Notes under the pieces: generated by a model
Told to the model about the DNA's origin: nothing
The model's input: only the letters and a program-made list of their open reading frames with translations
Database searches by the model: none
Position numbers and translations under genes: made by a program
IMG/VR virus record: IMGVR_UViG_3300031772_000168
Location: 1-32,576 of that record
DNA: 32,576 nt
From: a virus
Direction: 5' to 3' (one strand)
Shown: piece by piece, positions 6,640 through 26,089 of the stretch
Numbering within the stretch: position 1 is the stretch's first letter
Layout of the letters: the number at the start of each line of letters is the position of its first letter

Positions 6640-8073
6640 TTAAGAGGGCAGGTTGAGGGGAGACGCGGACGAGCCGATGTTTTTCACCAGCAAGCCTTTC
6701 CGCTTGGCGTACAGGATCGGAACCCCGTACAGCAAGATCATGAAGCGAATGGCGGCGGAGATCGTCGCCAAGGGCAACTTCATGAGGGGAGCCAACTGCT
6801 TAAACGCCATGACCTGCGTCGGGTTCATGTCGAACATGAAGGCTTCCGACGTGCCTTCGATATCCGCGCCCAAGTCCCTAACGACGAACGTGGCGTTCCC
6901 GACGGTGTAACCCGCGTCATCTGCGGGGACGACAGTCCGCAGATACAGCTTCGTCCCGCTGGCGGTTCTCCGATAGATACGGAAAGACGCCGCCGCAGGC
7001 TGGTCAATGGTCGGGGTGGCCGTCGGCAGGGTGATGGTCAACGGGATATACTTCCCGTCTCCGCCGGTGGTGATGTCCGATCCGCCGTCCGCAATGGCGA
7101 GAGACTCGCCATTCTGGTTGACTGCTGAGACCGAGTAGCCATAGGTCCCGCTTTTGAGCGAGGTCCCCGATCCCGTCGCGGAACCTGCTACGATTCCGAG
7201 TCCACTCGTCGCCGGAGCGCCGATCTGTCCAGCCGAAAGCACCGGGCCGCCTTCCTTGATGAAGACATCCGGGTTGAACTGGAGTACGCCGTTCTGGGAC
7301 GAGAAGTGCGTGATCGGAACTCCGACCACACCCTTTTCCGGCGCGGGCAGGTTGACCCGCTCGCGGGGGAAGAACGTCTTTGCGATGTTCGCCATCGCCG
7401 CGACGCTGAGGAACACGTCGGTGACCATGCCGAAATTCGAGGCCACGGTCTGAGCGCCGGTTTCCAGGACGCTCTCATTGAGAGGCATTCCCTGGGCATC
7501 GATGACGTTGCCGCCAGCGGTGCTGAGGAGTTGGGCGCGGAATCCATCCCACTCCAGGGCGTTCCAATAGCTATTGCCATAGAACAGACCCTTTTCGACG
7601 GCTCGCATGATCCAGAGGGTCCCGTTCCGGGCCTCCAGAGCCATGACATCGCCGTGCGCGGAACGAACCAAGGTCATCGGGTGCGTGACGACGCGGGTGT
7701 TTCCGATGAACTTGATGAGCGCGGTTCGGCGGGTGTACGAGGTGTCCTCCTCGCGGGGCAGACCGCCTTCTTGGAAGAAGGCACCGGAATCCGCACCGTA
7801 GTCGTTCAACTCGTTGTATTCCTCGACGGTGGAATACGCGGGTAGTTTCGCCAGCTTTTTCCAAAGCTTCACATGCTGGTCGAGGTACGTCAGAACCTTG
7901 AGGGTTGATTCGAGGCTCTGCGGGCGAAGGGCTCCTCCACCCGTTTGAGACGAAACGTCGTATCCGGCGCTGATGGCCTTGTTGAGTTCATCCAGAGTGG
8001 CGGCGGACCCTAGGTCCCCTCCGCCGAAACCCTGGAGTCCCTCGTAGTCGGCCAGGCTTACCATGTTTTGCAT
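6640..8073 (-). CDS. Major capsid protein with Ig-like insertion
   Basis: 477 residues, ATG at 8073 after AAGGAG. The region at residues 55-280 and the C-terminal block ('PTQVMAFKQLAPLMKLPLA', then 'IRFMILLYGVPILYAKRKG', residues 418-460) have the look of an HK97-fold shell protein with a terminal P-loop/A-domain strand. Residues of about 290-405 break in with a Gly/Ser/Thr-rich stretch containing 'GTYGYSVSAVNQNGES' and 'FRIYRRTASGTKLYL', typical of an Ig or fibronectin-III-like domain. It follows protease and scaffold-like genes, the usual order. Identification rests on length, order and block pattern; I cannot run a fold search. The only realistic alternative is another abundant head protein. 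Confidence 0.88.
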   Translation of the reverse strand: MQNMVSLADYEGLQGFGGGDLGSAATLDELNKAISAGYDVSSQTGGGALRPQSLESTLKVLTYLDQHVKLWKKLAKLPAYSTVEEYNELNDYGADSGAFFQEGGLPREEDTSYTRRTALIKFIGNTRVVTHPMTLVRSAHGDVMALEARNGTLWIMRAVEKGLFYGNSYWNALEWDGFRAQLLSTAGGNVIDAQGMPLNESVLETGAQTVASNFGMVTDVFLSVAAMANIAKTFFPRERVNLPAPEKGVVGVPITHFSSQNGVLQFNPDVFIKEGGPVLSAGQIGAPATSGLGIVAGSATGSGTSLKSGTYGYSVSAVNQNGESLAIADGGSDITTGGDGKYIPLTITLPTATPTIDQPAAASFRIYRRTASGTKLYLRTVVPADDAGYTVGNATFVVRDLGADIEGTSEAFMFDMNPTQVMAFKQLAPLMKLPLATISAAIRFMILLYGVPILYAKRKGLLVKNIGSSASPLNLPS

Positions 8074-8117: not shown

Positions 8118-8969
8118 CTACTCCTTGGTCTCACCAATGACCAGCTTTTCGACAGACTTGCTCATCTCGCCGGTCGTCTCGTAGCGGGCGGTCGTTCCAT
8201 AGGGAACCTTGCTCCCCATTTCCAGGTCCGCGAGCTTCGAGGAAATCTCCGACTTGCTGAGTTCGTTTGCATCGCCAGCCTTGGGCGCATCGTTGCGAAA
8301 CGACTTTGCGATGGTCTCAGCCGGTCCAGAAATCGCCTTGCGAGGGCGGGGTGCGGCACCGAAAGACTCGACCTGCTCGTTCATGCTCTTGAGCATGTCG
8401 TTCTGGGCGGACTGGCTCTTGGCCAGGGCTTCGCCCAGGGCGGCGTTGGACTTCTCCAGACGCCTCATGCGATAGACGACATCGCCGAGGACCTCGGACT
8501 GGCTCTTGACCAGATCGCGCAGGAACTTGGAGACCTCGATGGCGTTCGAGACGGTCTCGGACTTGGCGAGGGTGTCTTCGACGGACTTGCGATAGCCCAC
8601 CTTTTTCTTGTCCTCGTCTTCCTCATCCACTTCCTCGTCTTTCTTGCCCTTGGCGTCCTCGTCCTCGTCGTCCTTCTTATCGCCCTTGGAATCCTTTTTG
8701 TCGAGGTCGCTGTCGGCCCCGTGGATTTCTTCCTCGTCTTTCTTGCCCTTCACGTCCTCGTCTTCCTTCTTGTCCTCGTCCTTCTTGTCCTCGTCCTTTT
8801 TCATGAACGGGGGGAGCTTCTTGTCGCCCTTGGCGTCCTCATCCTCATCCTTCTTGGCGGACTTGGAAATCGTTTCCACATCGCCAGACGCCGCCTTCTG
8901 GAGGGTCGCCAGGCTCTCGTCGAGCGCCTTCTCCAGTTCGGACTTAACTTCCTCTTTCTTATCAGCCAT
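8118..8969 (-). CDS. Charged scaffold-like protein between protease and capsid genes
   Basis: 283 residues, extremely rich in Lys, Asp and Glu at residues 38-125 (short KKDED-type repeats), then a helical part (about 130-205) likely to form a coiled coil. There are eleven K-S dipeptides, mostly preceded by hydrophobic-x. Position between prohead protease and major capsid protein, high charge and predicted helices fit an internal scaffold that organises the shell and is later cleaved or expelled. No sequence family is recognised. The low-complexity part also gives a Ser-rich reading on the opposite strand, which is only its mirror. Confidence 0.8.
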   Translation of the reverse strand: MADKKEEVKSELEKALDESLATLQKAASGDVETISKSAKKDEDEDAKGDKKLPPFMKKDEDKKDEDKKEDEDVKGKKDEEEIHGADSDLDKKDSKGDKKDDEDEDAKGKKDEEVDEEDEDKKKVGYRKSVEDTLAKSETVSNAIEVSKFLRDLVKSQSEVLGDVVYRMRRLEKSNAALGEALAKSQSAQNDMLKSMNEQVESFGAAPRPRKAISGPAETIAKSFRNDAPKAGDANELSKSEISSKLADLEMGSKVPYGTTARYETTGEMSKSVEKLVIGETKE

Positions 8970-8983
8970 TTTTTTACCCTCTC

Positions 8984-9835
8984 TTATCGATGGATTCCGA
9001 GGATGCGTTTGTGGTTTTTTCCAATGTAGGCGGCTAGAGCATCAGCGCGATCATCGCTGAGTCCCTGGCTTTTGAACCATTGTTTGGCCGCGTTCGCATC
9101 TCCCGTAAAGTGCTTCGAGGAGACAAACTTCCGAAACACCCTAACGTCGCTCTCTAAGTGCTGGGGGATTACTGGGTTCGAGCCCACGGCAGTTGTCCCG
9201 CCCGCAGGACCACCGGAGCCGGTGCTGATTGCTTTCTCAAAATCTTCCCGGCTGGCAATGATGAAGTCCTTGCCCCCGAGATTCACGACCTGACCAAGAG
9301 ACTCTCCAGACGCCAGAGACTTCATAAAGGAACCGTAGGCGTTGGCCGTGGCGAAGGTGCTGAGATTCTTTGGGTGGGGAGTGAGCGCGACGTGGTTGAT
9401 GATGGCCTCAACCACCCTGGGGACGAAGCGCTGGAGGCTCTTATCGAACTGCATAGCCTTCTTTACGATCTTCCCCCCAATAGACCAGCCCATCCGGGTC
9501 GTCCCGGCCTTCATGAGGGCCCAACATTGGTCGGCGATTTCCAGGCCCTTGTAGAGCTTCCCCTTGAGGTGCATCCGGTTGTCGTGGTCAAACCGGCCCT
9601 CGATGGGCTCCCCGATGATATATTTGGGCTCGTCCTTGGATTTATGGTCGTAGTCGATCCGGCCATGCTTTAGGAAATAATCCAGGCTTTTTCTGAGACC
9701 GGATGCTGAGACAATCTCATTGTCCAGGTCCAGGTCTTCCGTGGAGGCTACGCCGTAGATCAGGCGCTCGCCGTTCTCGGACTCCTTTACCCCACCCTTT
9801 TCAATGGGGACCCAGAACCCAAACGTGTCCAGCAT
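8984..9835 (-). CDS. Prohead maturation protease, XkdF/HK97-like serine protease
   Basis: 283 residues. 'IYGVASTEDLDLDNEIVSASGL' (residues 26-47) is the typical opening of this family ('V-[AS]-S-T-E-x-x-D-x-x-x-[ED]-[IV]'). A candidate catalytic His is H64 in 'IDYDHKS', and a candidate Ser is S118 in 'MGWSIGG'. 'INHVALTPHPKN' further on matches the conserved segment before the end of the protease core. The family cleaves scaffold and capsid N-termini inside the prohead. About 60 C-terminal residues ('DVRVFRKFVSSKHF...') form an extra small domain. The ATG lies inside the 14-bp palindrome TCCAGCATGCTGGA, with GGGGAG 10 bases upstream. The scaffold-like and capsid genes follow directly. Confidence 0.87.
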   Translation of the reverse strand: MLDTFGFWVPIEKGGVKESENGERLIYGVASTEDLDLDNEIVSASGLRKSLDYFLKHGRIDYDHKSKDEPKYIIGEPIEGRFDHDNRMHLKGKLYKGLEIADQCWALMKAGTTRMGWSIGGKIVKKAMQFDKSLQRFVPRVVEAIINHVALTPHPKNLSTFATANAYGSFMKSLASGESLGQVVNLGGKDFIIASREDFEKAISTGSGGPAGGTTAVGSNPVIPQHLESDVRVFRKFVSSKHFTGDANAAKQWFKSQGLSDDRADALAAYIGKNHKRILGIHR

Positions 9836-10414: not shown

Positions 10415-10720
10415 TCACGACCCAATTTTAACAGGTGCGCCAGAGATTGTCAAGTCTTTTCTGAGGTCTTGAGACTCGTCTTGAGATTCTCGATTCGACA
10501 CGATGAGATGATGAGATTTATAGCTCATCGCCTCGACGAGAACCTCGGTCTTGCATTGCGGACACGAACCGAACACGCGCCCGCCACGAATGACGATTGC
10601 CCTTTGAAGCACAACGATTTCACCAGATGTGCGCTGGACCACGATCTTGCAATTGCATGTGGGACAGCGGAGCAATGCCACGGAGCCGTTCCCGTTCTGA
10701 GCCGTCTCAGAGTTTGACAA
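10415..10720 (-). CDS. Zinc ribbon protein, possibly Com-like
   Basis: 101 residues with two knuckles: C19-P-T-C22 (plus C24) and C53-P-Q-C56, spaced as in a zinc ribbon. The tail is Ser/Gln/Asp-rich ('ESQDESQDL'). It overlaps the end of the preceding gene by 14 bp. Small zinc-binding proteins near head genes include the phage Mu Com translational regulator, but the length and cysteine spacing differ, so I only suggest the comparison. The DNA for its last 35 residues also carries a strong promoter and short repeats for the next operon. It may be a DNA- or RNA-binding regulator. Confidence 0.8.
   Translation of the reverse strand: MSNSETAQNGNGSVALLRCPTCNCKIVVQRTSGEIVVLQRAIVIRGGRVFGSCPQCKTEVLVEAMSYKSHHLIVSNRESQDESQDLRKDLTISGAPVKIGS
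10425..10453 (-). promoter_or_regulatory. Strong sigma70-like promoter for capsid operon
   Basis: Minus strand TTGACA (10453-10448, perfect -35), a 17-bp spacer, then TAAAAT (10430-10425, 5 of 6 with the -10 consensus), preceded by TGT for an extended -10. The expected start is near 10418, giving a leader of about 130 nt before the 73-residue gene. It lies inside the 3' end of the zinc ribbon gene. Confidence 0.75.
10466..10487. repeat. GTCTTGAGAC-type repeats upstream of promoter
   Basis: GTCTTGAGAC (10466-10475) and GTCTTGAGAT (10478-10487), spaced 12 bp centre to centre, about 13 bp upstream of the -35. With the pair at 10386-10405 they bracket the promoter. They also encode the repeated S-Q-D of the zinc ribbon protein, so coding constraint is a competing explanation. 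Confidence 0.5.
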
Positions 10721-12680
10721 AGAGAATCTCCTTCGAGAGCTTCTCGCTCTCTAATGATTTCACCACGTCCGCGAGCGTGGGCTTTTCACTCGCCTTCTCG
10801 GGGCTCTGCTTCCGGTCAATCCAGGTGTATTCCCGACGGAAATCGGGATCGTAGTCCCCGACTTCCTCGCGCCCCCCAAGCCTAGCCTCAAGCGGGCTGG
10901 ACGCGGCGGCGTACTTGCCGGAACGAATCCAATCGTTCTTGGTTAAGATGCAAAGCTCCTGGCGGCCCATCCTCTTGACGTTGAGAAACGCCCGGTCGAA
11001 TGCGTCAACCTTTTTGCTGGACCTCACATCGGGAACATAATAGGAATGAGGGAGAGCCTTGCTGGGGTTATGGGTCGTGTTCGTCCGGTCCTGGATCAAT
11101 TTTGTTATCGCCTCACCCTCCGCCTCTGTTTGGGGACGGAATGCCAGGATATAGTCCGACGAGTAGGCGATCTTCTTTTTTCCTTCCGGGGTATCGACCT
11201 CGCGGAAGGTTTGCTCTTTGTCTAGGGGGCCCCAGTTGTCATCCCAAAATACCGCGCTGGCACGTTTGACGACGGTGTATTCCGGGCTGAGACCCTGTTC
11301 GTGCATGACAGCCAAAAGCTCCTCTCCGTGATCGACGCTCTGAGCGTACATGTGATAGGAGATAATCTTCTCGTCGGCGGTCATCATGTGAGAGTAGATT
11401 CCCTCGTCGGCGACTTCGTAGGAATCGATGTTGTAGCCGGATGCCTTCTTTCGGAGAAGGTAAGAGTCTCCCTCTTTTTTAACCCGGGGACTCACCCAGG
11501 CTTCAAACTTCTTAGGGACGCTTCCTGTCCACTTCCGGTATTTCTGGACATACTCCTCGGTGGCGGGTGCAAGCTTAGGCTTCTCGCGCTTCTCCGTGTA
11601 TTTATCGGCAAGGTCCTGGTATGGCTTAACCGCGCCCCAGGGAACATGCTCTCCGCGCTCGATGGCACGGGAAACCTCTTGCTTATGATCGACCTTCTCA
11701 AGTTTCCTGTCCACGGATCGGCGTGTCTCAAATTCCTGCGGAGAAAGTTGCCAGACCTGCATGAACGCTGGATTGTCCGGGGAATACCCTCCAGGTCTCT
11801 TGGCCAACTCATCCGGTGTGGCAGAGTTTTTGCCCGACTCAAACTTCTTTCGCTGGAGGATATCTCGGGAGACCGCCTCAACCAAAAATGCCTTGTCCTT
11901 TTCAGACGTAATGTGCTGGTTGCGTGAGGCGATAATATCAACTCTCTCTTGAAAAGCCTTCCTGCCTCCCATAGCCTCAGACGCCAATTGCATTGCCTTC
12001 TGGGTAGAGGCCGGGATAGCCAGCCCCGACATGGCGTAATCTCGAAGCCACGACGGGCTTTCTTTAAGTTCCTGACGCATCTCTCCCCGCTTCTTCCCAG
12101 CATGTTCCTCGGGGGGCTTGGCCTGTGGAACTGGTTTCTCAGGGAACCCGGTTTTCTTTTCCTCTGGCTCCTCGTAGATATAAACCCAGTTCCCACCCGG
12201 GCTCAGGTGGCGCTCTCGGTATTCGTGAGGATAAACCTCCTCACCCTTCTTTCCTTTTTCGAGATCAATATAGAGCGCGGGCTCTTGAGACCGGACCAAG
12301 TCCTTGAGAGCAGGCTTCTCCATTTTCCTGAGCTTCGTGTAATAATTCGGGTCCTCGACGAGATGGTCTTTGGCGATCTTGCGAGCAAGGCCAATGTCGC
12401 TGGTATGCTCCATCTCGACCTTCATCCCCATAACCAATTGTTTGGAGAGATGCTCCATCGAAACTTGATGCTTCTTGGCTATGTCCTTAAGAGTCTTTCC
12501 GCGAGACATGCCTCCGCGAACTTCCTCCTTGTCGCCCACGTCAAACTCGACCCCCAACTCACGCGCCATGTCACGCAGGGCCCGCTTATCCTGAATCACA
12601 TAGACCTGATGTGGATTTTCCTCGATCATGCGCTCCTGCTGGATGAAAAATTGTTTCTGCGGGTTTCGGATGACGCCCAT
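10707..12680 (-). CDS. DUF5661-containing multidomain head-associated protein
   Basis: 657 residues. I chose the ATG at 12680 over an upstream start at 12836 because the upstream gene ends at 12682 and AAGGGG lies 10 bases before this ATG. Residues 62-121 ('DIAKKHQVSMEHLSKQLV', then 'GMKVEMEHT', 'IAKDHLVEDPNYYTKL') match DUF5661, a phage-borne domain of unknown role. H152-Y169 is the shared motif H-x-Y-x2-R-x3-P-x-G-x-W-x-Y-x-Y, after which comes a proline/lysine-rich linker. The C-terminal 300 residues hold an alpha/beta domain I cannot name. It follows the MuF-like gene. An internal or injected virion protein is likely by context. Confidence 0.85.
   Translation of the reverse strand: MGVIRNPQKQFFIQQERMIEENPHQVYVIQDKRALRDMARELGVEFDVGDKEEVRGGMSRGKTLKDIAKKHQVSMEHLSKQLVMGMKVEMEHTSDIGLARKIAKDHLVEDPNYYTKLRKMEKPALKDLVRSQEPALYIDLEKGKKGEEVYPHEYRERHLSPGGNWVYIYEEPEEKKTGFPEKPVPQAKPPEEHAGKKRGEMRQELKESPSWLRDYAMSGLAIPASTQKAMQLASEAMGGRKAFQERVDIIASRNQHITSEKDKAFLVEAVSRDILQRKKFESGKNSATPDELAKRPGGYSPDNPAFMQVWQLSPQEFETRRSVDRKLEKVDHKQEVSRAIERGEHVPWGAVKPYQDLADKYTEKREKPKLAPATEEYVQKYRKWTGSVPKKFEAWVSPRVKKEGDSYLLRKKASGYNIDSYEVADEGIYSHMMTADEKIISYHMYAQSVDHGEELLAVMHEQGLSPEYTVVKRASAVFWDDNWGPLDKEQTFREVDTPEGKKKIAYSSDYILAFRPQTEAEGEAITKLIQDRTNTTHNPSKALPHSYYVPDVRSSKKVDAFDRAFLNVKRMGRQELCILTKNDWIRSGKYAAASSPLEARLGGREEVGDYDPDFRREYTWIDRKQSPEKASEKPTLADVVKSLESEKLSKEILFVKL
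12174..12227 (-). other. Shared 18-residue motif, copy 3
   Basis: Encodes H152 to Y169 of the DUF5661 protein. Fixed positions are H, E, Y, R, P, G, G, W, Y and Y, in ungapped register with the copies at 15712 and 25430. Confidence 0.75.
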
Positions 12681-12681
12681 G

Positions 12682-13536
12682 TTATGACCCCTTGACCCGA
12701 AGCGTACCGCCCGGGCCAATCTCATGGAACCTTGGGTTGTAAGCAACCCATGTGCATCGGCAATGCGGGTGAAGTGGTATGCAGGGCTTCCAGAGTTCCC
12801 CTGATACCCGAATGACGCCATTGGCCGCCTTCGCATGGCGCGTCCTCATGATATTGCTCTTTCCTGACCAAATGAAGTCATCCCATTTCGGATCGCTCGC
12901 GTTCTGAGGCGGCTCATGCGTTACGGTGAAAATCTTTCCCTGAATCATGCTCTTGCACCAGGGGCAACAGTCCGGTCGGCTCTGTCCAACAACTTTCTGG
13001 CCCTCGCCCTGAGACATGATGTAGCCATTCATGACGATGCTGGCGCTCTCGGTCACGGCCACACGTCGCCAGTCCCGATCCAGGTTCTTGAAAGTTTTTC
13101 TCAGGCGCTCGGCTAGGTCCTTTGAGGACATCCCTTCCAATTTAGCCTGGGCGATTAACAGCCGAATGGATGTCCGTGCCTGGTCGCTGATCTTTTGGAG
13201 ATTCTCAGCCGACCGCGTAAAGGCAAATTTGAGCATGTTCTTCGACATCGCATTATAGGGGAGGATGTCGTTTATGTTCTCCACCGCTCCCAAAGAACCT
13301 CCGGGGTGACGATGACCCATGACATGATCTGAGTTCACCTTGGCAGGGATCATGTCGGAGAGTTTTGAGACAGGCTTCCCGAGACGCTCATAGAGGGCCC
13401 ATAGAGCGCCGATGGTAAGAAGCTTTATGGCCCAGTCCTTGAAATTAACCCGCTTCATTTCCTCGTTCGTCTTCTTGTCCACCTCGTTTAGGTCCTGGAA
13501 TAGCGGGACCTTGTGGTCGAGGGAATATGGCTTCAT
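12682..13536 (-). CDS. Phage Mu gpF-like minor head protein (MuF)
   Basis: 284 residues. The C-terminal half is diagnostic: 'RVAVTESASIVMNGY' (158-172), the C-P-W-C motif at C191-C194 and 'PLHPHCRCTW' with C259 and C261. This is the signature of the Phage_Mu_F family, a portal-associated minor head protein that is often injected. The first 150 residues are helical, with a hydrophobic segment near 36-50. Many MuF proteins carry a C-terminal toxin; here the protein stops 23 residues after the motif, so none is fused. The start codon overlaps the preceding stop (ATGA), and the gene follows the portal cluster. Confidence 0.93.
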   Translation of the reverse strand: MKPYSLDHKVPLFQDLNEVDKKTNEEMKRVNFKDWAIKLLTIGALWALYERLGKPVSKLSDMIPAKVNSDHVMGHRHPGGSLGAVENINDILPYNAMSKNMLKFAFTRSAENLQKISDQARTSIRLLIAQAKLEGMSSKDLAERLRKTFKNLDRDWRRVAVTESASIVMNGYIMSQGEGQKVVGQSRPDCCPWCKSMIQGKIFTVTHEPPQNASDPKWDDFIWSGKSNIMRTRHAKAANGVIRVSGELWKPCIPLHPHCRCTWVAYNPRFHEIGPGGTLRVKGS

Positions 13537-13806: not shown

Positions 13807-16800
13807 CTATAAGTTCACGATCAGATCAGGCTCGCCCTGAGATTTTTCTGCTACCGGAGGGGCCTCTCCCCATCCAAAATGCGCCGGGTCGTCAAATATC
13901 CTTTCCGTCTTGTTCTTATTGATTCCCAAGAGATGCTTCGGGAGAGCCCATCGACCCTGCAACTTCTCGAAGTCGTTGGGACCAACGATATTCTTGATCG
14001 CTTGCTCGTCAAGCTCTCCGCGCTGGAGTTTGTTGACGTATTCCGGGCCCCTGGCTTTCAGGTTGTCGTGGAACTCAGAAACAAAATCTCTCTGGAGATG
14101 GTTTTCGACCCGAGCCTTTATGTCTCGCAGTTTACTCTTATCGAATCCCATGCGCCTGGCAAAAAGCTGTTTTCCGAAAAGCTGGTTCACTAAGCGCTTC
14201 GGGCAAACTCGGACGAATTCTCTTAGCTGATATGCCGCATTGAACTTATCTCCAGCCTTCCAGTATCCAAGAGCTTCGTCTAAATATTTCTTTTGCCTGG
14301 GGACCAGATGCTCCAGGAGAGGATGTAAGAAGTCGTTTACGGCACCGATATCCTTGAACATCGCGGGCGCACCGGCCTCTTTCCCGACGATAGCCGTCTT
14401 CCCCGTTATGTCAAATGGGTTCATTTCGGCCTCGGGAGGGGCACTATATTTCGACGGCCTGTTCTTCTTCTCCCACCTGTTCATGTCGTACCAGGAGGCA
14501 AGAGTTACCCTTCCCAGCTTGTCTCGGTGGCTATCACCCAGGAGCCAGTCGATCCGATCTGCAACCCGCTGGATTTGGTCCTCGGAAATGTTTTGCCGAA
14601 GTTCATGATCGATTACCTTCCTGCGGCGTCTCTTGTCTCGAATATCATCTCTCAGCTTGCGTAGGTCTCGGAGGGTTTTCTTGTCTATAACCTTCCCCGT
14701 GGCCATGTGTCCAAATTCATCATAGCATCGTTGATTTTCGAGTGCCCCGTCTCCGAAAGAATACCCATTATCGACGAGAAGAAATCTCCAAGGTTTCCCA
14801 TATCGAGAATCGGGATCACGAACAACCATCAAATTATTTTGGTGCCGATCCTGATGGTTGATAATCATGTCGAATATAAAGAACCTCATTATTTCTTCTT
14901 GGGCGATTTCCTTGAGATGCTCTTTCCCTTCTATCTTGCTAAATTGGATGGCTCCCTGAGCGAAGGCTTGCAGGCTGGCCTCGTTCATGTCCTTGGTGCT
15001 GAATGCTTTATAGACCGGGTTGTCTCCGCCCTTGTCTTTTTTTATCGCTTCCTCGATAATCCTGCTTCCTTGTCCCTTGAGTTCGCGGAGAGCGGTGGGG
15101 GGAACGAGATTCCATTTCAAAATCTTGTCGATGGCATAGGCACATACTTCTCGGTAGATGGTGGTATGCTCGTCAATCTCATGGCGAACCTGATTGCGCC
15201 CAAACTGCAAGGCGCTCGACTTCGGCTTCACCAGGGCATCACCATCATTTTTCAGCTTGGCCCTGTATTTCACCTGGATTCCACCCTCTCCCCAGCCTTC
15301 ATAAATTTTCTCGACGGCCCACGTCTTGAGAGCCGACTCATTGTCTTTCGCGTCATTCTCGGACAGAGCGAAAATCCTCTCCTCGCGCTTGGGCTTACCA
15401 TGTCTCCAGTCTGGCTTCCCCTCGGGAGATTCCTTCTCCTCCGGCTGTCCTTCGGCCACGGGCTTGGGAGCCGCATTGGGGTTGAAGGCATCTGGACCAG
15501 GCTTGATGTCATCGATTATCTTCGGCCTTTCCGGGATGTCGAAATGATGGGTCTCGATTCCTTGCCCGCGCTTGGCCTCCTGCATTTGCTCGGGGGCAGT
15601 CATGCTCTGCCTGCGCCGCGCCCACTCAGTATCACTTTTTATCTCAGGATGGTGTCTGCCCTCCTCATGCAGGGCCTCATGAGAAAAATAATGGTGACCG
15701 CTGGGCATCTCGTAGTAATATTTGAAGCTCCCGTCGGGCATGGACTCACGATATAGGTATTTGTGCCCAGGCTTCATCTGCCCCTTTAGCGGATTGGGTC
15801 CCAGATTTCCCAAATGAGCGCCTGCTGTTGGGTTATTGGGCTCGGCCTTTTCCAGGCAAATGTCTTCGCATGGTTCTGTCAAGAACTCATCGAGAGCCTT
15901 CTGAATAGCATCAAGCTCATCCAGATCAGAGAGGCTGGGCAGGCGCGTGTCGCAATAGCTCTCGAAGACTTGAGATTTTAGAATCTCAGAATCATCTCGC
16001 GCTTCCAGGCCGGAGTTTGGGCTCTCTGACTTTTGGAATTTATCGATGATCTGATGAACGAAATCCCATTTCTTTTTTCCAGTCTCACCAACGAAATATT
16101 GTTTCGCTCCCAGCATGGCAAAGGCAAATGATTCGCAGAAATCTTCTTTAGGGTTACGGGCCCCATACCACCTGGGGAAGCAGGTGCCTTTCTTGTACGC
16201 CCAGCGAGACTTTAGAGTCGTCTCATTCTTGTCTTTTAGGATTAGGCGGTCATGGCCTTCGGCGGGTTCTCCGTCGAGGCCGATGAACTTCCATTCAGAT
16301 ATTTCGAGCCACTCTTTTTTTCCAGAGAGATCGTTTCGGTCATCAATAGAATGTCCGACCTCATGCAAAAGAGTTTGGGTGATCTTGTTAACTGGTTTCC
16401 CCTTTCCGTCCTTATAGATCGTGTTGTCCCCGAAGATATTTGGGTTCAGGACAACCTTTTTGCTTTCGTCGTAGTAGCGCCCATGATTAGGATACTTCGC
16501 CCGGGAGGCACCGAAGCGCCCATCGACAGACACCAGGCGGACTCCCGCCTCAAGAACTTCCTTGGGAATAAGACTGAGAACCTCGTCGATCTCTTTGGCT
16601 TGGTCGAATGTGACGGTGCTTCCCAGTTCGATCCCATGCCCCTCAAGGACCTGATCCCGATACTTCTCCTTGTCGAGCAAGCCCTTGGTGAGATTCGTCT
16701 CAATCTTGAGACTACGAAGTAGCCAGGAATAGATGCCGCTAAGGGCTTCGTGGCCTTGGTCATAAATCTCATCCTCGGAGGCGGCTATCGCCCTAACGGG

Positions 16801-16950
16801 ATGAGATTTCCAAATTCCATTCTCGATCTGTTCGCCGAGCTTCACTCCTTTCTCAAGAAGGCTCTCTGTGGCGGCCTTAATGAGTGCGGGCAGGCGCTCC
16901 AAAAGCTCCTGCTTGGTGATCCCATTGTCAATTCGGAATTTGATTTTCAT
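13807..16950 (-). CDS. Polyvalent protein: zinc metallopeptidase plus PI3/4-kinase-like domain
   Basis: 1047 residues in two enzyme-like parts. N-terminal: H196-E-V-G-H200 with a later 'NPKEDFCESFA' (E270/E273 as third zinc ligand), the layout of an ATLF-type gluzincin. Central linker: the shared motif at H396-Y413, then a Pro/Glu/Lys-rich stretch. C-terminal half: 'ALVKPKS' (K575, nucleotide site), 'YREVCAYAIDKIL' to 'LVPPTAL' (599-620), catalytic loop D701-R-H-x-x-N706 and metal site D727-N-G729. This is the pattern of bacterial PI3/4-kinase/HipA-like kinases. It lies between portal and MuF genes, so it is probably packaged and injected. Targets unknown. All key residues are present, with no frameshift. 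Confidence 0.9.
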   Translation of the reverse strand: MKIKFRIDNGITKQELLERLPALIKAATESLLEKGVKLGEQIENGIWKSHPVRAIAASEDEIYDQGHEALSGIYSWLLRSLKIETNLTKGLLDKEKYRDQVLEGHGIELGSTVTFDQAKEIDEVLSLIPKEVLEAGVRLVSVDGRFGASRAKYPNHGRYYDESKKVVLNPNIFGDNTIYKDGKGKPVNKITQTLLHEVGHSIDDRNDLSGKKEWLEISEWKFIGLDGEPAEGHDRLILKDKNETTLKSRWAYKKGTCFPRWYGARNPKEDFCESFAFAMLGAKQYFVGETGKKKWDFVHQIIDKFQKSESPNSGLEARDDSEILKSQVFESYCDTRLPSLSDLDELDAIQKALDEFLTEPCEDICLEKAEPNNPTAGAHLGNLGPNPLKGQMKPGHKYLYRESMPDGSFKYYYEMPSGHHYFSHEALHEEGRHHPEIKSDTEWARRRQSMTAPEQMQEAKRGQGIETHHFDIPERPKIIDDIKPGPDAFNPNAAPKPVAEGQPEEKESPEGKPDWRHGKPKREERIFALSENDAKDNESALKTWAVEKIYEGWGEGGIQVKYRAKLKNDGDALVKPKSSALQFGRNQVRHEIDEHTTIYREVCAYAIDKILKWNLVPPTALRELKGQGSRIIEEAIKKDKGGDNPVYKAFSTKDMNEASLQAFAQGAIQFSKIEGKEHLKEIAQEEIMRFFIFDMIINHQDRHQNNLMVVRDPDSRYGKPWRFLLVDNGYSFGDGALENQRCYDEFGHMATGKVIDKKTLRDLRKLRDDIRDKRRRRKVIDHELRQNISEDQIQRVADRIDWLLGDSHRDKLGRVTLASWYDMNRWEKKNRPSKYSAPPEAEMNPFDITGKTAIVGKEAGAPAMFKDIGAVNDFLHPLLEHLVPRQKKYLDEALGYWKAGDKFNAAYQLREFVRVCPKRLVNQLFGKQLFARRMGFDKSKLRDIKARVENHLQRDFVSEFHDNLKARGPEYVNKLQRGELDEQAIKNIVGPNDFEKLQGRWALPKHLLGINKNKTERIFDDPAHFGWGEAPPVAEKSQGEPDLIVNL
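15712..15765 (-). other. Shared 18-residue motif, copy 2
   Basis: Encodes H396 to Y413 of the kinase/peptidase protein, in the linker between its two enzyme parts. Fixed positions are H, K, Y, R, P, D, G, F, Y and Y. Confidence 0.75.
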
Positions 16951-17018: not shown

Positions 17019-18908
17019 TCATTGTATGATGAACTCCACTACTTCTTCTCCATCTTGCGACTTGGTCACATTCATCCCGATGTGGTCGCGTTCGCGCTTC
17101 CGCGCACCCATCTTTTTTTCGTTCTCGCGGGCCTCTTGAAAACCACCATTGGTGGTCTCTTTTTTGGCCACGGTAGGCAGGGGCATCTCGACTCCATTCT
17201 GCCCGGGCGTCGGCTCGCGCAACTCCTTGGGAGCGTCTTTCCCTCCACCCGGCAACATCGGAGGCTGTCCGCCCTGTTCGGGAGGCTGGCCACCTCCTTG
17301 ACCGGGAGGCATCTCTGGCTGGCCTCCTAGGCCAGACATCTGCTGTTCTGCGGCCTGGTCGGCCTTCTCCTGCTCGCGCTGGTAGTTCAAGTCGGCCATA
17401 TAGACCTGAGCGAGAGTGGCCGATGCCGGGGCATTCGCCCAGTTTGCCCGAATCGGCTCCAGGTCTTCGAGCGCACGGGCCTCGTTTACTGTGAGGACTC
17501 CGTTCTGGAGCTTCTTGCCTAGAAGCTCAACCTTGTCGCGCTCTGACATCGCGTCGATCCCAACCCACTCAAAGAATAGATCGGGGTAGATTTCCTTGAC
17601 GACATACTCGTTAAAGATATGGGCCAGAAACTTTAACAGCGGGCGCAGTCCTTTGTCCTTCGAGAAGTCGAGGCGAACAGCACCGGAATGTTCCACCATA
17701 GGACCGCCGCCAGCGCCCTTTATCATAAACCCGATCTCTGACGGGTCTATCGTAAACACCGAACACACGGTCTGTATCAGATATTCCAACCAGAGGTTGT
17801 ATTGCATGTTCCGGTTGGACTCCTTGAAGGGAGTGAAGCTGACTCCGCCCTGTGCCTCGTCGATGGCCATGATCGGGATTTTCCAGGAGTTGGCCACGCC
17901 GGACACCTGGGCGATCCATTGACGCTTAAAGGCTTCAAGGGCTTCCGGGGTGTATTTCCCGGCGATATTGAGGACGCCCTGGGGTAGCGCGTTCTGGGTA
18001 AAATACTTGGCGTTGTATTGCTCCGTGAAAAGAACCTGGGTCACGGTCTCCATTAGAATCTCAAGCTCGCTGAGACCATAACCCCCGATGTCTATGTCCG
18101 TGCGGGGGTTTCTCACGGCATAGCAGAGGTCCTTTTCATTGAACAGGGCTACGCGCTGGCCAGAGTAAAGCTCCTGGACGTAGCGAACCGGGAGACCATC
18201 CGTGTATTCGGTGTGGTCCGGCATGGGTGCGCCCGTGCGCGGGTCCCATTTGTATTTCTCAGCGGCGTATTTAATCGTGCTGGGGTCCACCGGCCAGATG
18301 GCATGGGGCAAGCCGCGTTGATTTCGCTGGACTTCAAAGCAGACGGCGTCCAGGGTCAGGGTGTCTCGGACGATCTTCCTGATGAAGGTGTCGAAGTTGT
18401 CCCGGCGTCTCTCTCCAAAATAAAAATGAGAGTTGTACTGATCGTAGCCCATATTAAGGAACCACTCCGTCAATTCATTCATCCTTTCAAAATCGCTTGG
18501 GGTCGGTCGCTTCGTGGGGACGCGGGTGGTTATGCGGAACCCAATATCTCCGGTACGTCTAGGAATCTGCGTGAAGGCCGCGATCTGGTTCTGACGGGTT
18601 TGAATCACGGCTGAGACGGGCTTACAGGACAGAGCCATGCGGCGTAGAATCTGCCAGGTGACGCGAGACGGCTTCGCCCGGGAGCCCAAAAAGTCGAGCA
18701 GGTTGTACGGGTCTATGAACGTGCTTTTGAGACGAGAGGTACCGTTCACGTCCGATCCTTTCTGGAGTTGCATGGCGGCATCCAGCATCGTCGCATTGGT
18801 GTGGCTAAGGGGGATGTTCCTCATGCGCTCAAGCTCTTTTTTCCCGGCGACAGGGAGAGCATCGGATGCGTTTAAGTCCCCTTCTGAGAAACTTTTTCTA
18901 TCGGACAT
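17019..18908 (-). CDS. Portal protein
   Basis: 629 residues. The central portion is typical of HK97/SPP1-type portals: 'ILRRMALSCKPVSAVIQTRQ' near residue 90, 'RDNFDTFIRKIVRDTLTLDA' near 170, 'YGLSELEILMETVTQ' near 280, a 'NPRTDID' loop just before it, and the 'FTIDPSEIGF' plus 'VEHSGAVR' region near 400. Portals form the dodecameric vertex ring for DNA entry and exit and bind terminase. The last 120 residues are a Gly/Pro/Gln-rich then charged tail, longer than usual. The start overlaps the InPase gene by 11 bp. The kinase/peptidase and MuF genes follow. Confidence 0.93.
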   Translation of the reverse strand: MSDRKSFSEGDLNASDALPVAGKKELERMRNIPLSHTNATMLDAAMQLQKGSDVNGTSRLKSTFIDPYNLLDFLGSRAKPSRVTWQILRRMALSCKPVSAVIQTRQNQIAAFTQIPRRTGDIGFRITTRVPTKRPTPSDFERMNELTEWFLNMGYDQYNSHFYFGERRRDNFDTFIRKIVRDTLTLDAVCFEVQRNQRGLPHAIWPVDPSTIKYAAEKYKWDPRTGAPMPDHTEYTDGLPVRYVQELYSGQRVALFNEKDLCYAVRNPRTDIDIGGYGLSELEILMETVTQVLFTEQYNAKYFTQNALPQGVLNIAGKYTPEALEAFKRQWIAQVSGVANSWKIPIMAIDEAQGGVSFTPFKESNRNMQYNLWLEYLIQTVCSVFTIDPSEIGFMIKGAGGGPMVEHSGAVRLDFSKDKGLRPLLKFLAHIFNEYVVKEIYPDLFFEWVGIDAMSERDKVELLGKKLQNGVLTVNEARALEDLEPIRANWANAPASATLAQVYMADLNYQREQEKADQAAEQQMSGLGGQPEMPPGQGGGQPPEQGGQPPMLPGGGKDAPKELREPTPGQNGVEMPLPTVAKKETTNGGFQEARENEKKMGARKRERDHIGMNVTKSQDGEEVVEFIIQ

Positions 18909-19482
18909 GGAGGCCCACCTCTGGTTGTTTGAATCCCTGGGGCCTATTAGACGCCAGGTATCCTCTTAGGAACTGATCGTACAGCATCGTGTCGAGGCTT
19001 CCGAAGCCCCACTTCGGTCCATGCTCGAAGTAACACCGAGTCGCTTCGATGGCGTTATCGAACCCCAAAAAGACCTTGTCCTCGTCGAACTTTCCTTCCT
19101 TCGTGACTTGGTGGACCACGAAGACCAAATTAGAATCCGGGCAGGGCCCCAGATAAACGTCAACCGGGTCCTTATCCTCGCCTTCGGTCTGGGGGATTTC
19201 CCCGTATGGATACTTATAGGTCACATGCCAGGGCACACCATCGGGATCAACCCCCTCCGCTTCCATCCCCACATCAAGCTCGACATCGACCGGCGTCCCA
19301 CGGAAATAAGCGTGACGCACGATTGGCCGAGCCTTGCTCAACATGAACGGGTCGGCCATACCTCCGTGAGACCCAGCAATAAAATCCTCGGTCTCTTTTT
19401 TAGAGTTCTCTTTGTCAGCGCCGATCACATACTCAACCCCGGCACCGACAGAGACGATGTCGCTCTTGATAAAATGCTTCAC
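18898..19482 (-). CDS. Inorganic pyrophosphatase-like (InPase) phage protein
   Basis: 194 residues. I take a GTG at 19482, one base after the preceding stop; the longer frame to 19692 would overlap that gene by 200 bp. 'EGEDKDPVDVYLGP' (100-113) and 'GKFDEDKVFLGFDNA' (130-144) match the InPase domain described in phage polyvalent proteins, with Asp/Glu clusters like the metal-binding site of pyrophosphatases. Here it is stand-alone, just before the portal. A pyrophosphatase activity could act on nucleotide by-products or a host signal; alternatively the fold is structural. Catalysis is not proven by sequence. Confidence 0.82.
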   Translation of the reverse strand: MKHFIKSDIVSVGAGVEYVIGADKENSKKETEDFIAGSHGGMADPFMLSKARPIVRHAYFRGTPVDVELDVGMEAEGVDPDGVPWHVTYKYPYGEIPQTEGEDKDPVDVYLGPCPDSNLVFVVHQVTKEGKFDEDKVFLGFDNAIEATRCYFEHGPKWGFGSLDTMLYDQFLRGYLASNRPQGFKQPEVGLHVR

Positions 19483-19483
19483 G

Positions 19484-21076
19484 TTATTTCTTTCCCCGAT
19501 TCCCCGTCTTTCCGCCGCCCACTCCGCCGCCAACTCCATTGTTTCCGTGGGAGACCACATGCTTGATATGTCCCATCTGCTTTCCTTCCCCGGGGGCGTC
19601 CTTCTGAATCTTCCCATCCCTGGTCCTTTCGTGGGCATGCTTCCCCTTAGAGGAAGTCGCATGCTTCTTGGAGATAGGAGCATTTTCATCACCTCCCAGA
19701 GCGATCACATGCTCCTGCATCTTCGGAAGGGGCGGGATTTTTGTCGCAAGACGATGAGACACCGCCTTATCCGTGCTAGGGAATTTCACGACTTCGATCT
19801 TTGGGCTGAGACCACCCTCGCCCCAGTAGGTCAGGGCGTATTTGATCTTTCCGACCTGGCCGGTCTTGTGACCAGAGATTGCCTTGGACAGGTCTTGAGA
19901 CTTTTGAGACTTGTCCGTATGGGCCGGGGTGTGGAACCCATAGTCTTGATTCTTGAAACGCGGATCAGCCTGATCTCGGGACATGTCTTCGGTCTTGAGA
20001 CCAAGGCCCTCAGACGCCATCGTCACCTCGGCGAGTTCCTCATTGAGATCGCGGAGCTTGCGGTGTAGTTCCACCGATGTCTCTGGATCATTCGCGTCGA
20101 GCATCTTCTCCTCGCAACATGCGATCTCACAGTTCAGGTGAACGATCTTGGAGTAGGCTTCTTTCGCGGACATCTTGTGGATTTTCTTTTCCGGCATCCC
20201 GGCCACGATGGTCCCGCTTCCCACGGCGAGAGCGCCCATGCCGCCTTTTTCGAGCGTCATTTTCATCGCCTTGGCGATGACATCAAAACTCGTCTTGCCG
20301 CTAAGGGCAACCTTACGAGACCAAGCGCCCAGGTCGGAGAGAACCGTTCGGCGAGCCGCAATCTTCTTTAGACGGGACTTCTCCAGGGTGTTGGACTCAG
20401 AGCGATAGATCGGAGAATCCCGGTGCATTGATTTCTGGGCCTTCTTTTCTTCCGGTTGCTTCGCCTCCGGCTTTTCCTCGTCCTCGTCCTCCTCCTCTCC
20501 ATTGTCCTTGAGTTTTCGGTTCATCTCCCGGATTTTCCCCTGGTCAACGGCGTCCACGCTGGACTTCTTTTCTTTGCAGGATTTCATGATCTCTCTCTGG
20601 AGATTTAGCGGAATGCGAACATCGCCACGAAGACCGGATTTCGCCAGTTCAGCGGCGCGAGCGTCAAGAGCATTTGATTTCATCGATTCATCCTCCTCGT
20701 CTTCGTGATTGTTCACGACGATTGTCAAGTTTATGTTCGGGGGTAAGCCCGGGGTCGGAGCCTCGCTACCCTCTGGCTCGGAATGCGCTCCGCCCTCGTC
20801 CGCACCCGATTCATCCTCTACCTTCGTCCCGCTGGCCACGGGGACACCGGCCACATAATTCTCCCTAGTCTCGGGACTTTTGTCCATGATATCCTGCATC
20901 ATCTGGATTCCTCGTCCCTGAGAATCCATAATCATGCGGTCGTAAACTTGCCTGAGATGGGAAAGCTCGTCCCAGTATTGGGTGACCCGGTCGGGATCGC
21001 CCTCTGCTTGGCGGGTGAGGGCCTCAAGGTGGTCGAGGCGCTCTTTCACGTCTTCCATCGTCAAAGATTTTTCCAT
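19484..21076 (-). CDS. Long charged protein of unknown function
   Basis: 530 residues, AGGAG before the ATG. The first 60 residues form a helix suited to a coiled coil, then an acidic linker (81-130), a basic helix region, a Glu/Lys stretch (193-216), a compact helical part around 'HLNCEIACCEEKML', and a Lys/His/Gly-rich tail ending in repeated GGG. Several short K-S motifs occur, as in the scaffold-like protein. No family is recognised. The domain-linker-domain layout is like that of other large accessory proteins in this window. A head-internal protein or second scaffold is possible. Confidence 0.82.
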   Translation of the reverse strand: MEKSLTMEDVKERLDHLEALTRQAEGDPDRVTQYWDELSHLRQVYDRMIMDSQGRGIQMMQDIMDKSPETRENYVAGVPVASGTKVEDESGADEGGAHSEPEGSEAPTPGLPPNINLTIVVNNHEDEEDESMKSNALDARAAELAKSGLRGDVRIPLNLQREIMKSCKEKKSSVDAVDQGKIREMNRKLKDNGEEEDEDEEKPEAKQPEEKKAQKSMHRDSPIYRSESNTLEKSRLKKIAARRTVLSDLGAWSRKVALSGKTSFDVIAKAMKMTLEKGGMGALAVGSGTIVAGMPEKKIHKMSAKEAYSKIVHLNCEIACCEEKMLDANDPETSVELHRKLRDLNEELAEVTMASEGLGLKTEDMSRDQADPRFKNQDYGFHTPAHTDKSQKSQDLSKAISGHKTGQVGKIKYALTYWGEGGLSPKIEVVKFPSTDKAVSHRLATKIPPLPKMQEHVIALGGDENAPISKKHATSSKGKHAHERTRDGKIQKDAPGEGKQMGHIKHVVSHGNNGVGGGVGGGKTGNRGKK

Positions 21077-24958: not shown

Positions 24959-26089
24959 CTAGCAATACCGATACATCTGTCTCAGCGTCGCCTCTGCTCT
25001 CTGCTGGAGAGTCTCATGATCCAACCCGGGAGTCTCAGCCGCGAGGGATTTTTCCACGTCGGGCAAATACTGGGTCCTGAAAGACTCAAAGTCCACGGCT
25101 TCGCCACTTTGGGATTTCTGGACGGGCTTCTTTCTGCCCGCTTCCGTCTTACGGCTGTCGGCCTCTTGGCGCAACTGTTTCCCGAACGAGGAGCCCGAGG
25201 GAACGTGTCCCAGCATGGCGCTAATGTTCTCGTAGGACACGTTCTGGAGCGCGGCTCTGCGCTCTGCTTCGGGCTTTTTCTCCAGGGTCTCGATGTCGCG
25301 CCTAAGCTTCGATGTCGCGTATCCCTCCGGGACCACACCGGGCTGGCCAGGCTTCTTGGGGATTTTCTTGTATCCGGCCCCCGTAGCGTCCGGCGGTCGT
25401 CCGTGAGGCTTATCCTGGCCGCCTCCGGCATAAGAATACTTCCAGCCGCCACCTGGCTTCTGAATTCTGGACTCATATTTATGGACAGCCGCCGCAGAGC
25501 CGGGGCCAGCCTTCTCGAATTGAGAGGCAATGCTCGCCGCCGCCATGTCCTGCATGCTCGGCTTGTTGTCCAGCATGCTGGACTTTTGGAGTGTCCCGCC
25601 CATCTCTGCGTAGCACCGAACGACCAGGCCCAGATTCTTAAGGGCTGGTTCGGGCTTCTCCAGGCTCCCCCCGGACTTCTCCAGGGCACGGACCCATAGC
25701 CTTGGGTTGGAGATGAAGGTTGGAGTCACCTTGCAGATGTTCTCCATGAGGTCGAGAGATTTTTTGAGCTTGGAATGGAACTTCCCGCCCATCGTCTTAT
25801 AGATCGTAGAGATGATCTTCCAGAGGCGGGGGTTATCCTCGCTCAGGTCCGGGTACTGCTTCTTGGCCTTCGCCTTAGCCTCATCCCACTTCGCTTCGTC
25901 AACTTTGCCTGGCATATCCGCGTCTCCTTTGTTGTCGGCCCTTTCGGCCCAGTTTGTGTTCACGGCTCGCCTATCAGGTCTCAATAATCCATCATGGACC
26001 AGATGGCCGCCGACGGTGGTGTGGACAAAATCGGCATCGTATGTGTGCCCATCGACGGTTCTTTTTTCGTTGTTTGAGTCCTTTGTCAT
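24959..26089 (-). CDS. Multidomain phage accessory protein with shared motif
   Basis: 376 residues from an ATG overlapping the preceding stop (ATGA); the longer frame to 26188 reads into that gene. Residues 64-103 ('EAKWDEAKAKAKKQYPDL', then 'WKIISTIYKTMGGKF') match a W-x2-A-K...I-Y-K-x-M module common in phage polyvalent and protease-associated proteins. H203-Y220 is the shared 18-residue motif. Several K-S motifs precede linkers, as in other proteins here. One 14-bp palindrome lies inside the gene and encodes S-M-L-D. No enzyme site is recognised. Probably a head-associated accessory protein. Confidence 0.82.
   Translation of the reverse strand: MTKDSNNEKRTVDGHTYDADFVHTTVGGHLVHDGLLRPDRRAVNTNWAERADNKGDADMPGKVDEAKWDEAKAKAKKQYPDLSEDNPRLWKIISTIYKTMGGKFHSKLKKSLDLMENICKVTPTFISNPRLWVRALEKSGGSLEKPEPALKNLGLVVRCYAEMGGTLQKSSMLDNKPSMQDMAAASIASQFEKAGPGSAAAVHKYESRIQKPGGGWKYSYAGGGQDKPHGRPPDATGAGYKKIPKKPGQPGVVPEGYATSKLRRDIETLEKKPEAERRAALQNVSYENISAMLGHVPSGSSFGKQLRQEADSRKTEAGRKKPVQKSQSGEAVDFESFRTQYLPDVEKSLAAETPGLDHETLQQRAEATLRQMYRYC
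25430..25483 (-). other. Shared 18-residue motif, copy 1
   Basis: Encodes H203 to Y220 of the 376-residue protein. Fixed positions are H, K, Y, R, P, G, G, W, Y and Y. Confidence 0.75.
25569..25582. repeat. 14-bp perfect palindrome, copy C
   Basis: A third exact TCCAGCATGCTGGA, inside the coding sequence of the 376-residue accessory protein and 15.5 kb from the other two. All three copies are followed by C on the minus strand, so 15 bases agree. Confidence 0.9.

What the first reader, a model, noticed from the sequence alone, without database searches (positions are those of the whole stretch)
13807..16950. One virion-region protein combines a zinc metallopeptidase and a PI3/4-kinase-like domain
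Seen: HEVGH (196-200) with E270/E273 downstream, and in the same chain K575, D701-R-H-x-x-N706, D727-N-G729. Known: these are the catalytic residues of ATLF-type gluzincins and of PI3/4K/HipA-like kinases; multi-enzyme 'polyvalent' proteins of phages and conjugative elements have been proposed to be injected to act on the host. Inferred: this one is packaged beside the portal and MuF proteins and acts on host targets at DNA entry. I do not know of this exact pairing, but cannot search for it.
Basis: partly seen in the sequence, partly recalled or inferred. Interest (0 to 1): 0.8.

Follow-up and report, generated by a model that had tools for sequence, protein, structure and literature searches.

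The report
Phage head cargo: peptidase plus kinase
A phage gene next to the portal encodes one protein that joins a zinc peptidase to a protein-kinase-like enzyme, and it sits in a gene slot where related phages carry other host-attack enzymes that share a common sequence tag, so it is probably loaded into the virus head and delivered into the bacterium with the DNA.

Summary
ORF 16950..13807 is on the minus strand. It has HEVGH 196-200, K575, D701-R-H-x-x-N706 and D727-N-G. One slip: residue 270 is Asp, so the ExxxE pair is E269/E273. A 44%-identical homolog (L002) keeps every catalytic residue. The peptidase is ATLF/Pro-Pro-endopeptidase-like: in a partial, moderate-confidence model the first 26 structural matches are almost all of that family or related anthrax-toxin-family domains. 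The kinase belongs to the SCO1664/FAM20C/HipA-CtkA/PI4K superfamily (profile E 5e-9). That rests on sequence only; its model failed. The gene fills a portal-MuF slot of an SPO1-type head module. In related phages the slot holds other polyvalent proteins with NUDIX, SNF2, LPD1-zincin, RelA/SpoT or DUF5661 domains. These proteins share a roughly 20-residue HKY...YxY module, often just behind a Phi-x-K-[SAG] site. That site is also enriched in the phages' own protease and scaffold, so it looks like the prohead-protease site. Best reading: a head-packaged, probably protease-cut polyvalent cargo whose zincin and kinase act on host proteins at DNA entry. Packaging, cutting and targets are inferred. 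It is a known kind of protein, with a domain pairing I did not find described. The shared tag and slot may be the more general novelty.

The parts
13807..16950 (-). 1047-aa polyvalent protein (P0001)
   Evidence: Intact ORF; homolog L002 at 44% identity over full length in the same place behind the portal gene
16024..16668 (-). ATLF/PPEP-like gluzincin domain, aa 95-309
   Evidence: Pfam ATLF E 0.013; A9 profile vs PDB sequences: ATLF family 5e-5, PPEP 0.7; hhalign to Bacillus-phage zincins E 7e-8; fold match Z 8.2, unrelated rows 2.6 and below
16351..16365 (-). HEVGH, aa 196-200
   Evidence: HELGH in L002
16132..16167 (-). Y262...E269-x3-E273 (YGARNPKEDFCE): inferred catalytic Tyr and third zinc ligand
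   Evidence: Invariant Y and E seven residues apart in all five aligned zincins
15844..15849 (-). Phi-x-K-[SAG] site LEK368|A between the two enzymes
   Evidence: One of six such sites (K25, 34, 89, 307, 325, 368) kept in L002
15646..15798 (-). HKY module region, aa 385-435 (HKYLYR..DGSFKYYYE)
   Evidence: Most conserved stretch versus L002 (63%); recurs in unrelated cargo proteins
14506..15348 (-). Kinase domain, aa 535-815, SCO1664/FAM20C/HipA/PI4K-like
   Evidence: TIGR03843 E 4.9e-9 and 9.4e-12 in the record scan; FAM20C 4.3e-5 in two collinear pieces
15226..15228 (-). K575, nucleotide-binding lysine (ALVKP)
   Evidence: Aligned to ALFKP of FAM20C; kept in L002 and the plasmid relative L020
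14833..14850 (-). DRHQNN 701-706, catalytic loop
   Evidence: L002 has DRWMAN
14764..14772 (-). D727-N-G, metal-binding DxG equivalent
13810..14460 (-). C-terminal region aa 831-1047, no known family; ends EKSQGEPDLIVNL
   Evidence: 34% identity to L002; no Pfam hit
17019..18908 (-). Portal protein gene, directly upstream
   Evidence: Phage_portal 4.4e-28; 40% to SPO1 gp3.1
12682..13536 (-). MuF-type minor head protein gene
   Evidence: phrog_115 8.7e-7, Phage_Mu_F 7e-4
10707..12836 (-). Second likely cargo: DUF5661 protein with HKY module at 12171-12227
   Evidence: DUF5661 8.7e-17; module behind LEK|G
24959..26188 (-). Third likely cargo: 409-aa protein with HKY module at 25427-25483
   Evidence: Module behind FEK|A; site enriched 6 vs 1.9
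18898..19692 (-). InPase domain protein of polyvalent type
   Evidence: PF18823 2.7e-29
8984..9835 (-). Prohead protease
   Evidence: phrog_1028 head maturation protease 7e-28; Phi-x-K-[SAG] 8 vs 1.8 expected
8118..8969 (-). Scaffold
   Evidence: phrog_15087 head scaffolding protein 5.8e-5; Phi-x-K-[SAG] 11 vs 2.1 expected
6640..8073 (-). Major capsid protein with N-terminal site DELNK32|AISAG (7975-7980)
   Evidence: phrog_752 7e-89; same site DALNK|ALEAG in SPO1

Best explanation
P0001 is a head-cargo polyvalent protein of a tailed phage with an SPO1-type head. It is made from the portal-MuF slot as one chain: an N-terminal ATLF/PPEP-like zinc peptidase, then an HKY module, then a FAM20C/HipA/SCO1664-like kinase. 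The most likely course has three steps. (1) The chain is taken into the prohead, perhaps through the HKY module. (2) The phage's own prohead protease cuts it at Phi-x-K-[SAG] sites, freeing the zincin (sites at K89, K307, K325, K368) from the HKY-kinase part. (3) Both parts leave with the DNA; the zincin cleaves and the kinase phosphorylates host proteins early in infection. Shown here: domain identities, conserved active sites, gene slot, shared module, and the enriched site in protease and scaffold. Inferred: packaging, cutting, delivery, and protein (not lipid) substrates.
For: Both domains and all catalytic residues are kept in L002. The zincin profile and partial fold model point to ATLF/PPEP. 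The kinase profile points to SCO1664, FAM20C and CtkA, and a mobilizable-plasmid protein is homologous (E 6e-7). In relatives the same portal-MuF slot holds other polyvalent proteins: a HEWGH zincin with LPD1, NUDIX proteins, SNF2, RelA/SpoT. The HKY module occurs 10 times in the first loci against 0.3 in shuffles. A DNA-pattern scan of 2.9 million viral contigs found it in 16; in 13 it lies next to a portal or MuF gene. In 9 of 11 distinct modules there a Phi-x-K-[SAG] site lies shortly upstream, against 6.9% of positions (P 1.6e-9). That site is enriched in protease and scaffold of this phage, of most of the portal relatives tested and of SPO1. Precedents: P1 DdrB, N4 vRNAP and MPTase polyvalents (PMC5512222), and ejection proteins cut by the prohead protease in SPN3US (PMC5694885).
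Against: No virion proteomics was available for this phage. The site excess in P0001 itself is modest (10 vs 4.6, p 0.016) and not significant in L002 alone (9 vs 5.6, p 0.11). P0001's own module has no strict site right before it; NPLK|G does not fit, and the nearest strict site is 27 residues upstream. The kinase fold was not modelled (pLDDT 33), and the zincin model covers only part of the domain well (mean pLDDT 60). No substrate is known.
Confidence: 0.6

Rival explanations
1. The zincin is a processing enzyme: it cuts its own chain or other cargo in the head or after entry, and the kinase (with any other cargo) is the real effector.
For: Iyer et al. 2017 propose this role for MPTases of polyvalent proteins, citing P1 DdrB (PMC5512222). 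Zincins recur in the slot in unrelated cargo.
Against: The linker sites kept between P0001 and L002 are Phi-x-K-[SAG], the motif enriched in protease and scaffold, so a cutter is already at hand.
Confidence: 0.2
2. It is a structural or assembly factor that works in the producing cell (for example phosphorylating or trimming head proteins) and is not delivered.
For: Head-operon position between portal and MuF; a zincin of group 1 jumbo phages has been suggested to act in virion maturation (PMC7824862).
Against: Slot contents vary freely among relatives (NUDIX, SNF2, RelA/SpoT, zincin) and SPO1 lacks the slot altogether, which suits exchangeable effectors, not core assembly parts.
Confidence: 0.12
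3. One or both domains are catalytically dead and serve as binding modules.
For: H703 becomes W in L002; scores are below all curated cut-offs.
Against: All zinc ligands, the general base, the Tyr, K575, E601, D701, N706 and D727 are kept at 44% overall identity. The position of H703 also varies in related kinases (PI4K2; own knowledge).
Confidence: 0.06

Closest known systems
Phage polyvalent proteins (Iyer et al. 2017, PMC5512222), e.g. P1 DdrB, N4 vRNAP
   Same: Unrelated enzymes in one chain, a zincin among them, encoded beside portal/MuF genes of a terminase-portal phage; InPase and LPD1 partners nearby or in relatives
   Different: ATLF/PPEP-like zincin joined to a FAM20C/HipA/SCO1664-like kinase. 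The kinases in that paper are truncated STYK kinases lacking the C-lobe; the terms HipA, PI3, phosphatidylinositol and Fam20 do not occur in it
ATLF / Pro-Pro endopeptidase family (MEROPS M34)
   Same: HExxH, downstream ExxxE with Tyr seven residues before the ligand Glu, fold match Z 8.2 to ATLF and 7.5 to PPEP
   Different: 15.7 bits against the 27.4 curated cut-off; none of the other domains of the known toxins; phage head context
SCO1664 family (TIGR03843), FAM20C, HipA/CtkA, PI4K type II
   Same: KP lysine, Glu, DRxxxN loop, DNG; collinear match to FAM20C and SCO1664
   Different: 35.9 bits against the 172.4 equivalog cut-off; fused to a zincin and an HKY module; long insert before the catalytic loop
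T4 capsid-targeting sequence and prohead-protease-cut ejection proteins of SPN3US/phiKZ
   Same: Cargo with cleavage sites of the phage's own prohead protease (PMC5694885)
   Different: Site here is Phi-x-K-[SAG] (inferred); the candidate tag is a roughly 20-residue HKY module behind the site, not a short N-terminal peptide before it

Membership tests
Polyvalent protein of phages | Two or more unrelated enzymatic domains in one polypeptide | tested here: met
   Zincin and kinase in one ORF, both also in L002
Polyvalent protein of phages | Encoded beside virion genes of a portal-terminase phage | tested here: met
   Portal upstream, MuF, protease, scaffold, MCP downstream, TerL in the same record
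Polyvalent protein of phages | Packaged and delivered with DNA | not testable with these tools
   Only indirect support: slot, HKY module, protease-like sites
ATLF/PPEP gluzincins (M34) | HExxH, third Glu ligand and catalytic Tyr at the family's spacing | tested here: met
   H196, E197, H200, Y262, E269; invariant in five sequences. Spacing of the known enzymes from own knowledge
ATLF/PPEP gluzincins (M34) | ATLF/PPEP fold | tested here: met
   Top 26 rows are ATLF/PPEP or related anthrax-toxin-family domains plus one putative metallopeptidase, Z 8.2 to 5.7, next row 2.6. Caveats: mean pLDDT 60, Foldseek E 0.02
ATLF/PPEP gluzincins (M34) | Pfam PF07737 curated score | tested here: not met
   15.7 against 27.4 bits; so described as ATLF/PPEP-like, not filed as a member
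HipA/FAM20C/PI3-4K-like kinases | Nucleotide-binding Lys, DRxxxN catalytic loop, DxG metal site in order | tested here: met
   K575, D701/N706, D727; collinear with FAM20C and plasmid relative L020
HipA/FAM20C/PI3-4K-like kinases | Protein-kinase-like fold | tested here: inconclusive
SCO1664 family (TIGR03843) | Equivalog cut-off 172.4 bits | tested here: not met
   35.9 and 26.5 bits: homologous, not an equivalog
PI3/PI4 lipid kinases | Pfam PF00454 curated score | tested here: not met
   19.1 against 27.1 bits; lipid substrate not tested

The most novel reading that the evidence does not exclude
Phages with SPO1-type heads have a dedicated cargo slot between portal and MuF. Its products share an addressing tag: a prohead-protease site Phi-x-K-[SAG] followed by an HKY...YxY module. 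Large multi-enzyme chains are taken into the head through it and cut into pieces that each begin with the module. Here the cargo delivered is a protease-kinase pair.
Probability: 0.45. Interest if true: 0.85.

Novelty: new variant of a known kind. Interest (0 to 1): 0.64.

Why it matters
A FAM20C/HipA-like kinase and an ATLF-like peptidase delivered together would mean that a phage can rewrite host proteins by cleavage and phosphorylation before its first gene is read. The shared slot and HKY tag give a concrete, testable rule for spotting head cargo from sequence alone. They would also help to answer how polyvalent proteins get into capsids, a question for which I found no packaging signal described in the paper that defines them.

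Tried and rejected
Whole-protein tblastn in phages: no match; plasmids only E 0.9 or worse. Domain tblastn at E 10 gave only hints, later useful as L003 and L004. Peptide-pattern scans with P0001, A1, A2 and A3 found nothing beyond L002; genome scans found none. AlphaFold2 on the full chain with two sequences was useless (pLDDT 33). PDB search with the two-sequence profile gave chance Kunitz hits. The A6 kinase profile includes HipA-like rows, so its CtkA match is biased; A7, without them, gives FAM20C and is the one I rely on. BFVD fold search gave no match with E under 0.001. TIGR03843 was sought in ten relatives' records: only L002's has it. I considered the truncated STYK kinases of polyvalent proteins (PMC5512222): the motif order and the hits fit SCO1664/FAM20C, and no Pfam model of that kind was hit at E 1. 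tblastn of two HKY modules in named phages gave nothing significant. I did not scan genomes with the ATLF model, to keep listed toxins out as yardsticks.

Full report
OBSERVATION. The ORF is on the minus strand, 16950..13807, 1047 aa, intact, starting 68 bases behind the portal gene. The window is a 32,576-base IMG/VR virus record of the 'linear' class, often a fragment.

HOMOLOG. Nothing matches in named phages, and plasmids give only E 0.9 or worse. One IMG/VR contig, L002 (4,929 bases), holds a portal 69% identical to ours and, behind it, a 44%-identical homolog of the whole protein. All catalytic residues of both domains are identical; only H703 becomes W. Identity by region: N-terminus 49%, zincin 59%, HKY module 63%, linker 30%, kinase 49%, C-terminus 34%. 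Both enzymes and the module are under stronger constraint than the linker and the C-terminus.

ZINCIN. Pfam gives ATLF at 0.013 for P0001 and Peptidase_M91 at 0.006 for L002, both below cut-off. A Bacillus phage protein (L004) and three IMG/VR relatives (L024-L026) carry a zincin homologous to it (hhalign E 7e-8); L004 itself matches ATLF at 0.0036. All share HExGH, EWxxIS.W and YG..xPxEDFxExF. The five-sequence profile finds the ATLF family in the PDB at 5e-5 and Pro-Pro endopeptidases at 0.7. An AlphaFold2 model of aa 90-320 is good only from about aa 180 to 310 (mean pLDDT 60, pTM 0.63). Its matches under VIA-align are ATLF/PPEP or related anthrax-toxin-family domains, plus one putative metallopeptidase, for the first 26 rows (Z 8.2 to 5.7), then fall to 2.6. 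Foldseek alone is weak (E 0.02). I take the fold as shown at moderate confidence. The Tyr-to-Glu spacing of seven fits the catalytic Tyr and third zinc ligand of PPEP (spacing from own knowledge; E143/Y178 appear in PDB titles).

KINASE. TIGR03843 (SCO1664 family) matches aa 596-805 at 4.9e-9 and L002 at 3.6e-6, or 9.4e-12 in the record scan. PI3_PI4_kinase is at 1e-3 in both. A Brevibacterium plasmid protein (L020) is homologous (hhalign E 6e-7), with the same K, E, DRxxxN and DxG. The profile of these three finds FAM20C at 4.3e-5, in two collinear pieces that pair K575 with ALFKP, D701 with DRHHYE and D727 with DNGRGFG. PI4K2 is much weaker (0.15). A protein kinase is therefore more likely than a lipid kinase. 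The fold itself was not modelled.

PLACE. The order on the minus strand is TerL, InPase protein, portal, P0001, 88-aa ORF, MuF, DUF5661 protein, prohead protease, scaffold, MCP. SPO1 has portal, protease, scaffold, MCP with nothing between portal and protease. A portal-alignment scan gave 14 further relatives. In L014, L016 and L019 a large protein lies directly behind the portal, though the MuF assignment in L016 is weak: L014 a HEWGH zincin with LPD1 (1.8e-15), L016 and L019 NUDIX proteins.

HKY MODULE. These unrelated proteins share one short module: HKYLYRESMPDGSFKYYYE in P0001, HKYLKKYKKGDKWIYIY in L014, HKYIRKYQKNGEWIYIY in L019, and so on. The regular expression finds 11 cases, 10 of them convincing, against 0.3 in shuffles. 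A DNA pattern for one form of it, run over 2.9 million viral contigs, returned 16. In 13 of these a profile-detected portal or MuF gene lies next to the module-bearing ORF. Those ORFs are up to 2,304 aa and carry SNF2, NUDIX, RelA/SpoT, LPD1, DUF5661 and HEXXH domains: typical polyvalent proteins (PMC5512222). The module's function is unknown; a head-targeting or docking role is inference.

PROTEASE SITE. Phi-x-K-[SAG] is enriched in this phage's scaffold (11 vs 2.1), protease (8 vs 1.8), a 530-aa head-operon protein (8 vs 2.9) and a 409-aa protein (6 vs 1.9), and moderately in P0001 (10 vs 4.6, p 0.016). The same two genes, protease and scaffold, show it in six of the portal relatives tested (L008, L009, L012, L014, L015, L018), with other head-region ORFs enriched in L006, L016 and L019, and it is clear in SPO1 (8 vs 1.6, 11 vs 1.4). 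The MCP carries it near its N-terminus, DELNK|AISAG here and DALNK|ALEAG in SPO1. This is what a prohead-protease site looks like by analogy with T4 and SPN3US (PMC5694885), though I found no paper that maps it. Six of P0001's ten sites are kept in L002: K25, K34, K89, K307, K325, K368. All lie before or just behind the zincin, outside both catalytic cores. In the independent module set, 9 of 11 modules have such a site 3-13 residues upstream against 6.9% of positions (P 1.6e-9). P0001's own module is an exception: NPLK|G does not fit strictly.

READING. P0001 is a polyvalent head cargo, probably cut in the prohead into a zincin piece and an HKY-kinase piece, and probably delivered. Confidence by step: zincin fold 0.9; kinase superfamily 0.93; head cargo 0.8; cut by the prohead protease 0.55; both act on host proteins 0.6. 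The likeliest rival is that the zincin processes cargo (0.2). The kind is known; this pairing is not in the papers I could reach, a library that lacks most subscription journals. The slot and tag are the broader new observation and the most testable one.

Noticed in passing
L028-L043 and window 12171-12227, 25427-25483: A shared HKY...W/YxYxY module, usually just behind a Phi-x-K-[SAG] site, marks unrelated large proteins in the portal-MuF slot of many uncultivated phages: a candidate head-cargo tag.
   Followed up: partly
window 8118-9835; SPO1 L027:9481-10985: Phi-x-K-[SAG] is strongly enriched in prohead protease and scaffold of SPO1 and many relatives and occurs near the MCP N-terminus: a predicted cleavage motif of this protease family.
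   Followed up: partly
window 18898-19692 and 19484-21076: InPase-domain ORF overlaps the 530-aa ORF by about 200 bases as listed from its GTG; the real start is probably further in.
   Followed up: no
L020:2474-3556 (Brevibacterium plasmid pAP13): A mobilizable plasmid encodes a stand-alone relative of the kinase domain with the same catalytic residues and a conserved VPPT motif.
   Followed up: partly
L004:3784-6360 (Bacillus phage EZ-2018a) and L024-L026: Unannotated ATLF-like zincin at the C-terminus of an 858-aa phage protein, also in three IMG/VR contigs of about 120 kb.
   Followed up: partly
window 13810-13850 and 17019-17070; L002:1550-1601: P0001 and the portal end in similar tails: EKSQGEPDLIVNL and TKSQDGEEVVEFIIQ (L002 portal NKSQEGDDIILEFEIQ); perhaps a shared C-terminal peptide behind a K|S site.
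   Followed up: no
L032:3672-10583 and L039:8836-13935: Giant cargo ORFs (2,304 aa and 1,700 aa, the latter open at the contig end) with SNF2 helicase plus DUF5661, zincin or RelA/SpoT domains; L032 has two HKY modules, each starting a new segment.
   Followed up: no
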